Below are positions 12,485-31,016 of a stretch of 52,626 bases of DNA, piece by piece. How positions within the stretch are numbered: position 1 is the first letter of the stretch; each line of letters starts with the position of its first letter. The position numbers and the translations under genes were made by a program. The notes under the pieces were generated by a model. The model did no database searches. It worked only from the letters and a program-made list of their open reading frames with translations, and was not told the DNA's origin. Where the stretch lies: assembly GCA_017448545.1 (NCBI GenBank), contig JAFSLH010000005.1, positions 1 through 52,626 on the forward strand. Direction: 5' to 3'. This stretch comes from Clostridia bacterium. Its GTDB lineage: Bacteria > Bacillota > Clostridia > Christensenellales > CAG-138.

Positions 12485-12520
12485 AAAAAAACAGGGCGTT
12501 CCGGAATCCGAAACGCCCTG
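12485..12520 (-). terminator. terminator of the NifU-like/GGGtGRT operon
   Basis: On the minus strand: perfect 9-bp stem CAGGGCGTT (12520-12512) and AACGCCCTG (12500-12492), then seven T (12491-12485). It begins about 20 nt past the stop codon. Confidence 0.93.
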
Positions 12521-12537
12521 CCTATGAAAGCCGAAGC

Positions 12538-13557
12538 TTATTTGTTCATTGCCTGCTGCACCGCAACGGCGACGGCGACGGTCATGCCGACCATCGGGTT
12601 GTTGCCTGCGCCGAGGAAGCCCATCATCTCAACGTGCGCCGGGACGGAAGAGGAACCGGCAAACTGCGCGTCGGAATGCATACGGCCCATCGTATCGGTC
12701 ATGCCGTAGGAAGCGGGGCCTGCAGCCATGTTGTCGGGATGCAGCGTACGGCCGGTGCCGCCGCCGGAAGCAACGGAGAAGTACTTCTTGCCGGCTTCCC
12801 AGCGTTCCTTCTTGTACGTGCCCGCAACGGGGTGCTGGAAACGGGTGGGGTTGGTCGAGTTGCCGGTAATCGAAACGTCGGCGCCTTCATGCCACATGAT
12901 GGCAACGCCTTCGCGGACGTCGTCTGCACCGTAGCAGTTGACCTTGGCGCGCTCGCCGTTCGAATACGGGGTCTTGCTGACGATCGTCAGCGCATGGTCT
13001 TCCTTCACGTCGGCGGACAGGTAATCATACTTGGTCTGCACATAGGTGAAGCCGTTGATGCGGCTGATAATCATGGCGGCGTCCTTTCCGAGACCGTTCA
13101 GGATGACGCGGAGCGGCTTTTTGCGGACTTTGTTCGCGTTCAGAGCAATCTTGATCGCGCCCTCCGCAGCGGCGAAGGATTCGTGGCCGGCGAGGAACGC
13201 GAAGCATTCGGTTTCCTCATCGAGCAGCATTGCGCCGAGGTTGCCGTGGCCGATACCGACCTGACGCTGGTCCGCGACGGAACCGGGGATGCAGAACGCC
13301 TGCAGGCCGACGCCGATCCATTTGGCGGCTTCCGCGGCCGACTTGGCGTTTTCCTTCATGGCGATTGCCGCGCCGAGCTCATAGGCCCATTTCACGTTCT
13401 CAAAGCAGATCGGCTGCGTGCTTTCCACGATCGAGTAAGCGTCAACGCCCTTGCCGTTCGTATATGCCTTAACATCCTCAAAGCTCTTGAAGCCGTACTT
13501 GTCCAGGACGGGCTGGAGCTGAGGCATGCGGCCTTCGTAATTCTCAAATAAAGCCAT
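12538..13557 (-). CDS. GGGtGRT-family protein of unknown function
   Basis: A 339-aa protein that carries the motif naming its family (SGGGTGRTLHPDN, 264-276). The family's function is not established to my knowledge. It has no signal peptide or clear membrane helix, though the last 20 residues (GMTVAVAVAVQQAMNK) are apolar. Four cysteines (51, 89, 118, 208) and several Gly-rich turns (QVGIGHGNLGAM 99-110, LNGLGKDA 153-160) could form a cofactor or cluster site. The ATG follows AGGAGG. It starts 15 bp after the NifU-like gene, on the same transcript. By guilt of association it may receive or handle an iron-sulfur cluster, which is inference only. Confidence 0.93.
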   Translation of the reverse strand: MALFENYEGRMPQLQPVLDKYGFKSFEDVKAYTNGKGVDAYSIVESTQPICFENVKWAYELGAAIAMKENAKSAAEAAKWIGVGLQAFCIPGSVADQRQVGIGHGNLGAMLLDEETECFAFLAGHESFAAAEGAIKIALNANKVRKKPLRVILNGLGKDAAMIISRINGFTYVQTKYDYLSADVKEDHALTIVSKTPYSNGERAKVNCYGADDVREGVAIMWHEGADVSITGNSTNPTRFQHPVAGTYKKERWEAGKKYFSVASGGGTGRTLHPDNMAAGPASYGMTDTMGRMHSDAQFAGSSSVPAHVEMMGFLGAGNNPMVGMTVAVAVAVQQAMNK

Positions 13558-13572
13558 GTGCTGCTCCTCCTT

Positions 13573-14274
13573 TTATTCTTTCCGCGGGTCGATCCATTTC
13601 ACGGCGCCGTCTTCCGCCTTGAAGCGGCCGTAGGTACCGAGGTTCTTCTCGTACGCCTCGTTGGGGGACATCCCCTTCTTGATGGCGTCCATCATCTTGC
13701 CGAGGCTCAGGAACTGATATCCGCAAACCTGATCGTCCTTGTCCAGCGCCATCTTGACGACATAGCCTTCGGTCATTTCCAAATAACGGGTACCCTTGGC
13801 TTTCGTGCCGTACATCGTGCCGACCATGGAACGGAGGCCCTTGCCGAGGTCTTCGAGACCTGCGCCGATGCGGAGACCGTCATCGGAGAACGCGGACTGG
13901 GTGCGGCCGTAGATGATCTGCAGGAACAGCTCGCGCATGGCGGTGTTGATCGCGTCGCAGACGAGGTCGGTGTTCATGGCTTCCAGAATGGTCTTGCCGG
14001 GCAGAATCTCGCTCGCCATAGCGGCGGAGTGCGTCATGCCGGAGCAGCCGATCGTTTCGACGAGCGCTTCCTCAATGACGCCGTTCTTAACGTTCAGACT
14101 CAGCTTGCAGGCGCCCTGCTGCGGCGCGCACCAGCCGATGCCGTGCGTATAACCGGAAATGTCCTTGATTTCCTTCGCTTGAACCCATTTCCCTTCCTCC
14201 GGGATAGGCGCAGGACCGTGGTTCGGCCCCTTTGCAATACAAACCATTTCTTCGACTTCTTTTGTGTATTGCAT
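13573..14274 (-). CDS. NifU/IscU-like iron-sulfur scaffold domain protein
   Basis: A 233-aa cytosolic protein. Residues about 45-125 match the NifU-N/IscU scaffold fold. IGWCAPQQGACKLSL supplies one candidate ligand (Cys49 or Cys56), and ETIGCSGMTHSAAMASEIL supplies another (Cys77). The partner of the third IscU ligand falls in IIYGRTQSAF, which has no cysteine. About 100 extra C-terminal residues include Cys184. It is therefore a divergent scaffold, not a housekeeping IscU. The ATG 14274 sits behind GGAGG. The longer upstream frame is leader sequence. It is the first gene of an operon with the GGGtGRT gene and lacks isc, suf or nif neighbours. Confidence 0.88.
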   Translation of the reverse strand: MQYTKEVEEMVCIAKGPNHGPAPIPEEGKWVQAKEIKDISGYTHGIGWCAPQQGACKLSLNVKNGVIEEALVETIGCSGMTHSAAMASEILPGKTILEAMNTDLVCDAINTAMRELFLQIIYGRTQSAFSDDGLRIGAGLEDLGKGLRSMVGTMYGTKAKGTRYLEMTEGYVVKMALDKDDQVCGYQFLSLGKMMDAIKKGMSPNEAYEKNLGTYGRFKAEDGAVKWIDPRKE

Positions 14275-14307
14275 GTGTTGTCCTCCTTTTTCCGTAAATA
14301 GATTTGT

Positions 14308-14353
14308 CTTTTGGAATCCGTCGAATCCGTGCCCACGCACGTCGGTTCCAAAG
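14308..14353 (-). promoter_or_regulatory. structured leader of the NifU-like operon
   Basis: Between the promoter and the first ATG lie about 98 nt of leader. It contains a stem of CTTTGGAA (14353-14346) with TTCCAAAAG (14316-14308, one bulged base). Inside is a perfect GTGC-4-GCAC hairpin (14340-14329). It matches no riboswitch class I know. It could be a protein-binding or attenuating leader. Confidence 0.4.
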
Positions 14354-14378
14354 CCGAGGCGCATGAGATTCCTTAACA

Positions 14379-14407
14379 ATTTTACCATAGGTTCCGCCTA
14401 AACGCAA
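14379..14407 (-). promoter_or_regulatory. promoter of the NifU-like/GGGtGRT operon
   Basis: On the minus strand: TTGCGT (14407-14402), 17 bp, TAAAAT (14384-14379) with a TGG extended -10. It diverges from the DUF2804 promoter, with 51 bp between the two -35 boxes. Confidence 0.75.
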
Positions 14408-14458
14408 CTTCTTTTTTACCGGAATCTTTCGTCCTGTTTGGCAGCGCTTTGCCGTCTC

Positions 14459-14487
14459 TTGACACACGGAAGCCGAAGAAATATAAT
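14459..14487 (+). promoter_or_regulatory. consensus sigma-A promoter of the DUF2804 gene
   Basis: TTGACA (14459-14464), 17 bp, TATAAT (14482-14487): a perfect match to the consensus, the strongest promoter seen in the window. Confidence 0.88.
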
Positions 14488-14545
14488 GAAAACAGGACGG
14501 ATTTACGCAGCTTTTGCGAATCGAAATGATCCGGGGAGGAGAGCA

Positions 14546-30987: not shown

Positions 30988-31016
30988 TTGACAGATGAGG
31001 TACATCGCTTTATAAT
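30988..31016 (+). promoter_or_regulatory. sigma-A promoter of the PadR operon
   Basis: TTGACA (30988-30993), 17 bp, TATAAT (31011-31016), a perfect consensus. A very AT-rich stretch lies upstream (about 30957-30985), possibly an UP element. The spacer holds GATG-5-CATC, a possible PadR operator half-site pair, but a short and uncertain one. Confidence 0.87.

What the first reader, a model, noticed from the sequence alone, without database searches (positions are those of the whole stretch)
12538..14274. Two-gene module of a NifU-like scaffold and a GGGtGRT-family protein, function unknown
The two genes form a tight operon with its own promoter, structured leader and strong terminator. One partner has a NifU/IscU fold and the other belongs to a family known only by its GGGtGRT motif. 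No isc, suf, nif or cysteine desulfurase gene is adjacent, so this is not the general assembly pathway. The GGGtGRT protein has Cys51, Cys89, Cys118 and Cys208 and several Gly-rich loops, so it could be a dedicated client, or the pair could handle sulfur, selenium or a metal centre. The pairing is seen directly; the role is inference.
Basis: partly seen in the sequence, partly recalled or inferred. Interest (0 to 1): 0.75.

Follow-up and report, generated by a model that had tools for sequence, protein, structure and literature searches.

The report
Candidate iron-dependent substitute for enolase
Two neighbouring genes of unknown function, found together in many gut and other anaerobic bacteria, look like an iron-using, fluoride-tolerant stand-in for the glycolysis enzyme enolase, which could explain how some rumen bacteria live without one.

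Summary
The pair is real: U (NifU-like, 13573-14274, minus) and G (GGGtGRT, PF14057, 12538-13557, minus). U lies upstream of G in 76 of 80 named loci, the other four being cut by contig ends; in 199 genomes full-length U and G occur in the same 10. G's four Cys are not invariant; U has three that are, one at a canonical scaffold position.

New evidence points to enolase. (1) Fluoride riboswitches head the pair's operon in 13 of 104 loci, some with CrcB or CLC genes; enolase is a classic fluoride target. (2) Enolase is nearby in 5 of 80 loci. (3) Enolase was not found in 17 of 55 pair genomes, one rated 100% complete and Butyrivibrio-like. (4) Published data: with iron the pair rises and enolase falls in Clostridium pasteurianum; in Bacteroides thetaiotaomicron the enolase shift is weak (P 0.144).

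Best reading: an iron(-sulfur) 2-phosphoglycerate dehydratase. Activity is untested; five enolase-less genomes lack the pair, the contrast is not significant in near-complete genomes, and the window's copy has no riboswitch.

The parts
13573..14274 (-). U: NifU_N-like protein, 233 aa (P0002); Cys49, Cys77 and Cys106 invariant in the relatives aligned
12538..13557 (-). G: GGGtGRT protein, PF14057, 339 aa (P0001); no invariant Cys, many invariant charged or Gly positions (e.g. H125, E126, K158, D159, R270, H273, D275, R292, H294, D296 in the 59 rows of A3)
13558..13572 (-). 15-nt spacer between U and G with Shine-Dalgarno-like AAGGAGGAG
   Evidence: sequence; spacing in relatives
12489..12523 (-). 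intrinsic-terminator-like hairpin (16 pairs, 9 G-C) after G
14275..14545 (.). intergenic region upstream of U: no fluoride riboswitch or other Rfam match found, not unusually structured; the perfect sigma-70 promoter inside it (14459-14487) faces the other way, to the DUF2804 gene

Best explanation
U and G together provide the enolase step of glycolysis (2-phosphoglycerate to phosphoenolpyruvate plus water) with proteins unrelated to enolase. The most likely mechanism: U, derived from a NifU/IscU scaffold, holds an iron-sulfur cluster on its three invariant cysteines (49, 77, 106), leaving one iron free to act as the Lewis acid that pulls off the hydroxyl, as in the iron-sulfur hydro-lyases (aconitase, class I fumarase, serine dehydratase; recalled knowledge); G binds the phosphorylated substrate and supplies the base. 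Such an enzyme would need no magnesium pair, so fluoride would not block it, but it would need iron and be harmed by oxygen. Organisms with both could use U-G when iron is plentiful or fluoride is present, and ordinary Mg-enolase when iron is scarce; some gut and rumen anaerobes have lost enolase. SHOWN: the couple; fluoride riboswitches and exporters in the operon of some relatives; enolase near by in a few; enolase not found in 17 of 55 pair genomes; and, in published data of others, iron regulation opposite to enolase. INFERRED: the activity, the cluster, the division of labour, fluoride tolerance and oxygen sensitivity.
For: (a) Obligate couple. (b) Fluoride: RF01734 at Rfam's gathering score at the head of the pair's operon in 13 of 104 distinct loci searched: 3 of 10 in the window's phylum, 6 of 7 in the phylum of Photobacterium, 1 of 5 in that of Syntrophorhabdus, 3 of 6 plasmid records looked at out of 10 found (a Vibrio, two Persicobacter), and 0 of 78 named, gut-biased loci searched with my own model R1 (in 7 of these the contig ends before the start of U); two of the 78 (Myxococcales) have fluoride riboswitches and enolase elsewhere in the locus. 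Operons: riboswitch-U-G-crcB-crcB-DUF190; riboswitch-TauE-U-G-crcB-crcB-DUF190; riboswitch-crcB-DUF190-U-G; riboswitch-CLC-U-G; riboswitch-U-G. The label needs at least 4 changes on the G tree. (c) Enolase within the fetched flanks in 5 of 80 loci: divergent from U in Clostridium, Faecalibacillus and Treponema, close by in two Myxococcales. (d) No enolase in 17 of 55 pair genomes, while 14 of 14 control genomes have it; in one phylum 4 of 10 pair-positive versus 5 of 189 pair-negative lack it (Fisher 3.7e-4). G139, 100% complete, lacks it, and its G is 97% identical to that of two Butyrivibrio MAGs. (e) Iron: in C. pasteurianum enolase is 4.1- and 4.8-fold higher without iron (early phase, two spots) while GGGtGRT is 7.1-fold and NifU 2.4/3.7-fold higher with iron (PMC5395762 Table 2, passages); in B. 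thetaiotaomicron iron depletion changes the pair -11 to -12.8-fold (P 0) and the BT4570-72 cluster with eno +2.0 to 7.7-fold (P 0.144) (PMC10434189 Tables 5-6, passages). (f) Three invariant Cys in U: 79 of 79 loci sequences and all 41 rows of A5. (g) Bacteroidetes in chicken caecum: low or no enolase and phosphoglycerate mutase, GGGtGRT and NifU expressed (PMC11204068, passages).
Against: No activity, cluster or structure was observed; structure prediction was off. 38 of 55 pair genomes also have enolase. Five genomes of the phylum lack enolase AND the pair (G040, G080, G087, G107, G156; 85-97% complete), and three more have only weak or partial enolase hits (G031, G152, G188). Among genomes at least 90% complete the enolase contrast is not significant (1 of 7 versus 4 of 175, p 0.18); of the 17 enolase-less pair genomes completeness is told for four (60, 81, 83 and 100%), so some absences may be gaps. 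Enolase loss is also reported in groups I did not test for the pair, e.g. Saccharibacteria and Endomicrobia (PMC11257099, passages), and a methylglyoxal bypass has been proposed for Butyrivibrio (PMC4478896). The 80 named loci are those closest to the window and gut-biased. The B. thetaiotaomicron enolase change has P 0.144. The chicken-caecum paper found phosphoglycerate mutase low too. A Fur-like box stood out in only 1 of 78 upstream regions. 91 of 104 loci, the window's included, showed no riboswitch at the head of the pair's operon. U lacks two of three canonical scaffold cysteine positions, so cluster binding is inferred.
Confidence: 0.66

Rival explanations
1. A fluoride-tolerance module that is not enolase: it protects or repairs enolase, or replaces another fluoride-sensitive step (phosphoglycerate mutase, pyrophosphatase, another phosphoryl-transfer enzyme).
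For: The fluoride riboswitch and CrcB/CLC links suit any fluoride-stress gene; the review PMC11139923 (passages) names pyrophosphatase, antiporters and HAD phosphatases beside enolase. In chicken caecum phosphoglycerate mutase was low as well as enolase.
Against: Does not by itself explain enolase-less genomes with the pair or opposite iron regulation of enolase in particular (GapA and Tpi are not raised without iron there). I did not test phosphoglycerate mutase or pyrophosphatase presence.
Confidence: 0.16
2. One reading: a dedicated iron-sulfur (or selenium/metal) scaffold U with its client protein G, unrelated to glycolysis.
For: U is a NifU_N relative; the pair is iron-dependent in two species.
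Against: Two of the three canonical Cys positions, the Asp and the LPPxKxHC segment have no counterpart in U; G has no invariant Cys; a client reading does not predict fluoride riboswitches or enolase links.
Confidence: 0.08
3. The enolase link is an artefact: incomplete MAGs and gut lineages that lose genes, with the pair riding in fluoride operons for unrelated reasons.
For: Completeness is told for only four of the 17 enolase-less pair genomes; the contrast is not significant in genomes at least 90% complete; five enolase-less genomes lack the pair.
Against: G139 is 100% complete and lacks enolase; absence clusters by lineage (3 of 3 Paludibacteraceae records tested); isolate and PCR work elsewhere reports enolase loss in Butyrivibrio (PMC6118326, PMC6912079, passages); neighbourhood and iron data do not depend on completeness.
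Confidence: 0.06
4. Enolase-less bacteria bypass the step by a methylglyoxal shunt, as published, and the pair does something else.
For: Proposed for B. proteoclasticus; all 62 butyrivibrio genomes of one study had MgsA (PMC4478896, passage).
Against: D-lactate dehydrogenase was found in only one of those genomes; [quoted passage not shown] does not explain the fluoride and iron data on the pair.
Confidence: 0.04

Closest known systems
Enolase (PF03952/PF00113)
   Same: Proposed reaction; near the pair in 5 of 80 loci; often in fluoride-riboswitch operons (PMC11139923, passages)
   Different: No sequence relation seen: no Enolase_N/C match in any of 59 G or 41 U sequences. Enolase is fluoride-sensitive and made more without iron in C. 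pasteurianum
NifU_N / IscU / SufU scaffold proteins
   Same: 66 columns align at 96.9%; one Cys (U Cys77) in a canonical place
   Different: Window U is below Pfam's cut-off (20.6 vs 22); the first canonical Cys is Gln53, its Asp and the LPPxKxHC segment have no counterpart, Cys49 and Cys106 are its own, and U is about 100 residues longer
Iron-sulfur hydro-lyases (aconitase, class I fumarase, serine dehydratase, IlvD/Edd)
   Same: Works like, as proposed: three Cys, a dehydration, iron need; recalled, not tested
   Different: No Pfam match to any of them
Fluoride regulon genes (crcB/Fluc, CLC, eno, pyrophosphatase)
   Same: Same riboswitch, in some cases same operon, in 13 of 104 loci
   Different: The pair is not named in the review passages I saw; no paper in the library holds both 'fluoride riboswitch' and 'NifU'

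Membership tests
GGGtGRT family (PF14057) | match over Pfam's cut-off along the whole profile | tested here: met
   614.6 bits, profile 1-327 of 327
NifU_N / IscU-type scaffold | NifU_N match over Pfam's cut-off | tested here: not met
   20.6 bits vs 22 for the window protein; U of some relatives passes (e.g. 26.8 bits in G199)
NifU_N / IscU-type scaffold | three ligand Cys at canonical positions plus the Asp after the first | tested here: not met
   only Cys77 aligns with a canonical Cys; Gln53 and a gap stand for the first Cys and the Asp
NifU_N / IscU-type scaffold | LPPVK-type chaperone motif before the third Cys (role recalled) | tested here: not met
   the LPPxKxHC segment of canonical proteins has no counterpart in U
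Enolase superfamily | Enolase_N/Enolase_C domains | tested here: not met
   no match in 59 G and 41 U sequences
Functional enolase (activity) | 2-phosphoglycerate to PEP | not testable with these tools
   needs purified protein
Iron-sulfur hydro-lyase (as a mechanism) | three conserved Cys binding a [4Fe-4S] cluster with one open iron | tested here: inconclusive
   three invariant Cys in U in 79 of 79 loci sequences; cluster not testable
Fluoride-riboswitch regulon | RF01734 upstream of the operon | tested here: met
   for 13 of 104 loci; NOT met for the window's own copy
PLP fold type II (threonine synthase) | profile similarity beyond a short motif | tested here: inconclusive
   17 columns (NSxNPxRxQ), hhalign 10.6%, score 30.2; 30 column shuffles reach 20.2 against threonine synthases and 29.0 against cysteine synthases

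The most novel reading that the evidence does not exclude
U-G is the first known iron-sulfur enolase: a two-subunit, oxygen-sensitive, fluoride-proof 2-phosphoglycerate dehydratase in which a NifU-type scaffold was turned into a catalytic subunit. Anaerobes swap it with Mg-enolase according to iron supply, other bacteria switch it on with fluoride, and its presence is what allowed Butyrivibrio, Prevotella and others to lose a gene otherwise almost universal.
Probability: 0.5. Interest if true: 0.97.

Novelty: categorically new. Interest (0 to 1): 0.9.

Why it matters
Enolase is among the most conserved enzymes of life, yet rumen bacteria without it have been a puzzle since 2010 (Kelly et al., as cited in PMC11187502). 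A 2024 review still says it is not clear what may substitute (PMC11187502, passage); the Hungate1000 paper looked for a complementing function in Butyrivibrio and reports no substantial insight (PMC6118326, passage); the Oscillibacter genome paper guessed at an alternative enolase-like enzyme (PMC3558957, passage). If true, a Pfam family without an assigned role becomes a glycolytic enzyme of many gut microbes, iron and fluoride become switches of glycolysis, and metabolic models of gut and rumen change. The claim can be tested with one spectrophotometric assay.

Tried and rejected
Structure prediction of G, and of a joined U-G chain: switched off, so no fold search was made. Four-Cys cluster in G: rejected by conservation. 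Conserved neighbours in the 80 named loci (simple ORF calling, which recovered G in 65 and U in 61 loci): apart from U and G no family keeps a fixed place; enolase turns up in 5. PDB profile search with G: nothing (best E 1.1). G as a PLP fold-II relative: an HMM hit to a threonine synthase (E 2.9e-4) shrank to a 17-column motif, and part of the match lay in a stretch (about residues 209-233) where most threonine synthases break off; inconclusive, dropped. Structured leader: rejected. Fur-like box upstream of U: perfect (14/14) in one Clostridium between enolase and U (0 of 200 shuffles) but only 1 of 78 regions reached 12/14, so not used as general evidence. I first misread the B. thetaiotaomicron table as -2.7-fold (note); the column order shows -12.8 to -11.

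Fifteen papers were seen as passages found by term, none in full; other titles only as search listings; the Kelly 2010 paper was not read (cap). Statements that something is not in print rest in an open-licence library only.
Full report
What is there. On the minus strand the window holds U (13573-14274, 233 aa) followed after 15 nt by G (12538-13557, 339 aa) and a terminator-like hairpin (12489-12523). G is a full-length GGGtGRT protein (PF14057, 614.6 bits); U is a weak NifU_N relative (20.6 bits, cut-off 22). The perfect sigma-70 promoter in the upstream gap faces the other way, the leader is not unusually structured, and the flanking genes scanned (RmuC, YhhN, DUF2804, Asp23) suggest no shared role. 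The window lies in a 1.5-Mb, 60%-complete MAG; the closest named match is an uncultured Clostridiales (G 98% identical).

The couple. U lies upstream of G on the same strand in 76 of 80 (in five of these U itself is cut by the contig end, in two its frame is broken); in the other four the contig ends inside or just before G. In 199 genomes drawn from the window's phylum, G occurs in 10 and full-length U (420 bits or more) in the same 10; every other listed U-profile hit is at most 32.3 bits and covers only the NifU-like core. In the phylum of Photobacterium 7 of 299 genomes have G over the cut-off, in that of Syntrophorhabdus 5 of 198, among 14 control genomes one, Bacteroides ihuae. Hosts include Bacillota, Bacteroidota, Spirochaetota, Lentisphaerota, Myxococcota, Thermodesulfobacteriota and Pseudomonadota and Actinomycetota. 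No other family keeps a fixed place beside the pair in the 80 loci.

Not the general assembly pathway. Of 20 pair genomes, 17 have a separate canonical NifU_N protein and 14 have SUFBD; each has at least one of these.

Cysteines. G's four Cys are not invariant (Cys51 in 71 of 89; Cys89, 118, 208 in 86 of 89). U has three that are: Cys49, Cys77, Cys106, in 79 of 79 loci sequences and in all 41 rows of A5; of 16 further loci a strict pattern found 14, all with the three Cys. Against 18 SufU/IscU-type sequences, picked by a Cys pattern, only Cys77 sits on a canonical position; the first canonical Cys is Gln53, its Asp is lost, and the LPPxKxHC segment is absent. So U is related to the scaffold fold but has a rewired cysteine set.

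Fluoride. An Rfam search of 20 relatives' loci found the fluoride riboswitch RF01734 (55-58 bits, cut-off 34) next to the pair in 5. Following this up it heads the pair's operon in 13 of 104 distinct loci. The denominator: 10 pair genomes of the window's phylum (3 positive), 7 of the phylum of Photobacterium (6), 5 of that of Syntrophorhabdus (1), 6 of the 10 plasmid records (3), and 78 of the 80 named loci (0; searched with my own model R1, so divergent copies could be missed; L055 and L088 were not given to the call), less two loci counted twice. In 7 of the 78 the contig ends before the start of U, so the upstream region was not seen. In ten of the 13 the riboswitch is immediately before U (29-194 nt in the seven measured); in three a gene or two lie between (TauE/SafE; crcB-DUF190; CLC). 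In G181, G122 and G086 the operon continues with two CrcB fluoride channels and DUF190; in G701 it is crcB-DUF190-U-G; in Persicobacter psychrovividus CLC-U-G. Two Myxococcales MAGs have fluoride riboswitches a few kb from the pair: L059 two divergent ones, facing a Na+/H+ exchanger and a dynamin-like GTPase gene followed by enolase; L084 one at Rfam's score and one seen only by R1, the latter facing an unidentified gene followed by enolase. On a tree of 59 G proteins the riboswitch-operon label needs at least 4 changes. The window's own copy has none.

Enolase near by. Enolase is fluoride-sensitive and often sits in fluoride-riboswitch operons (PMC11139923, passages). It lies within the fetched flanks in 5 of 80 named loci: divergent and adjacent to U in Clostridium sp. 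(L023), Faecalibacillus (L051) and Treponema (L066), and close by in L059 and L084 (domains confirmed by Pfam for L051 and L059). The L023 gap holds a perfect Fur-like palindrome, but this is not general (1 of 78 regions).

Enolase missing. PF00113 was sought in 55 distinct pair genomes: 17 have no match, while 14 of 14 control genomes do. In the phylum sample it is missing from 4 of 10 pair-positive and 5 of 189 pair-negative genomes (Fisher 3.7e-4; 3.3e-3 without the incomplete own genome; 1.3e-3 if three pair-negative genomes with only weak or partial hits are counted as lacking it). Restricted to genomes at least 90% complete it is 1 of 7 versus 4 of 175 (p 0.18): the right direction but not significant. 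The pooled comparison, 17 of 55 versus 5 of 189 (p 1e-8), mixes samples of different origin and completeness and is only indicative. The one clear case, G139 (100% complete), has a G protein 97% identical to those of two Butyrivibrio MAGs. That fits published work: enolase-negative strains are under 0.5% of over 30,000 isolates, a high proportion being rumen Butyrivibrio, Prevotella and Lachnospiraceae (PMC6118326, passages), checked by PCR in Butyrivibrio (PMC6912079, passages); also Oscillibacter (PMC3558957) and Endomicrobia (PMC11257099), with the substitute still unknown in 2024 (PMC11187502). A methylglyoxal bypass has been proposed but is incomplete in most genomes (PMC4478896; PMC11187502). 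On the G tree enolase absence changes at least 8 times among 45 scored rows.

Iron. In C. pasteurianum the GGGtGRT protein is 7.1-fold higher with iron (early phase) and the NifU-related protein with the neighbouring locus tag 2.4/3.7-fold, whereas enolase is 4.1/4.8-fold higher WITHOUT iron; GapA and Tpi do not follow enolase (PMC5395762 Table 2, passages). In B. thetaiotaomicron iron depletion lowers the pair 11 to 12.8-fold (P 0), and the cluster BT4570-72 holding eno rises 2.0 to 7.7-fold, but with P 0.144 (PMC10434189 Tables 5 and 6, passages). In the passages I saw neither paper remarks on the opposition. In chicken caecum Bacteroidetes show low or no enolase (and phosphoglycerate mutase) while GGGtGRT and NifU proteins are expressed (PMC11204068, passages).

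Reading. Fluoride riboswitch, exporters, enolase near by, enolase loss, and iron regulation opposite to enolase all fit one reaction. Commitment: U-G performs the enolase step, with U as an iron-sulfur subunit and G as the substrate-binding subunit (0.66 for the activity; about 0.5 for the iron-sulfur hydro-lyase form). The activity, cluster and complex are not shown. Rivals: another fluoride-stress role (0.16), a scaffold-client pair outside glycolysis (0.08), an artefact of incomplete genomes (0.06), a methylglyoxal bypass with the pair doing something else (0.04).

Membership. By sequence the pair is a member of PF14057 plus a NifU_N-like protein whose window copy fails that family's cut-off and ligand pattern; no enolase domain was found in either. 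'Works like an enolase' is the claim; 'is an enolase homologue' is not supported.

Noticed in passing
L101:5001-5174, L102:5001-5171, L103:5001-5171, L105:5001-5165, L106:2977-3138: Viral contigs carry only the last ~55 codons of the G gene, followed in all five by a ~400-aa tyrosine-recombinase-like ORF (named by eye; no family search run); the 3' end of the GGGtGRT gene looks like an integration site for mobile elements, probably of Bacteroidota.
   Followed up: partly
L059:1207-4596, L084:9087-12546: Myxococcales MAGs with fluoride riboswitches a few kb from the pair; in L059 one faces a Na+/H+ exchanger and the other a dynamin-like GTPase gene followed by enolase.
   Followed up: partly
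L228:14381-15915: A second fluoride riboswitch (61.9 bits) in front of a CLC-type channel gene, about 3.5 kb from the one that heads crcB-DUF190-U-G.
   Followed up: no
L210:7772-8113, L211:8781-9131, L218:8352-8681, L228:11436-11783: DUF190 genes (three of the four with a weak P-II match) follow crcB in all four crcB operons seen here.
   Followed up: no
L034:9133-9396: A short CrcB-like ORF (87 aa, 40.6 bits) lies convergent to G in a Bacteroidales MAG, without a riboswitch found.
   Followed up: no
L232:1-6993: In Collinsella aerofaciens the pair lies downstream of sufB-sufD-sufS-sufU with a transposase between.
   Followed up: no
L023:7033-7047: Perfect Fur-like palindrome TGATAATAATTATCA between divergent enolase and U (0 of 200 shuffles as good).
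   Followed up: partly
L084:6118-7980: The reading frame of U stays open far upstream (620 codons) in this Myxococcales MAG; not examined whether it is a fusion.
   Followed up: no
window 30988-31016 (+): A second perfect TTGACA-N17-TATAAT promoter-like site; 0.02 such sites expected per window.
   Followed up: no
PMC9942572 (passage): GGGtGRT is listed there among putative virulence factors of Clostridium innocuum by a prediction program; nothing here supports such a role.
   Followed up: no
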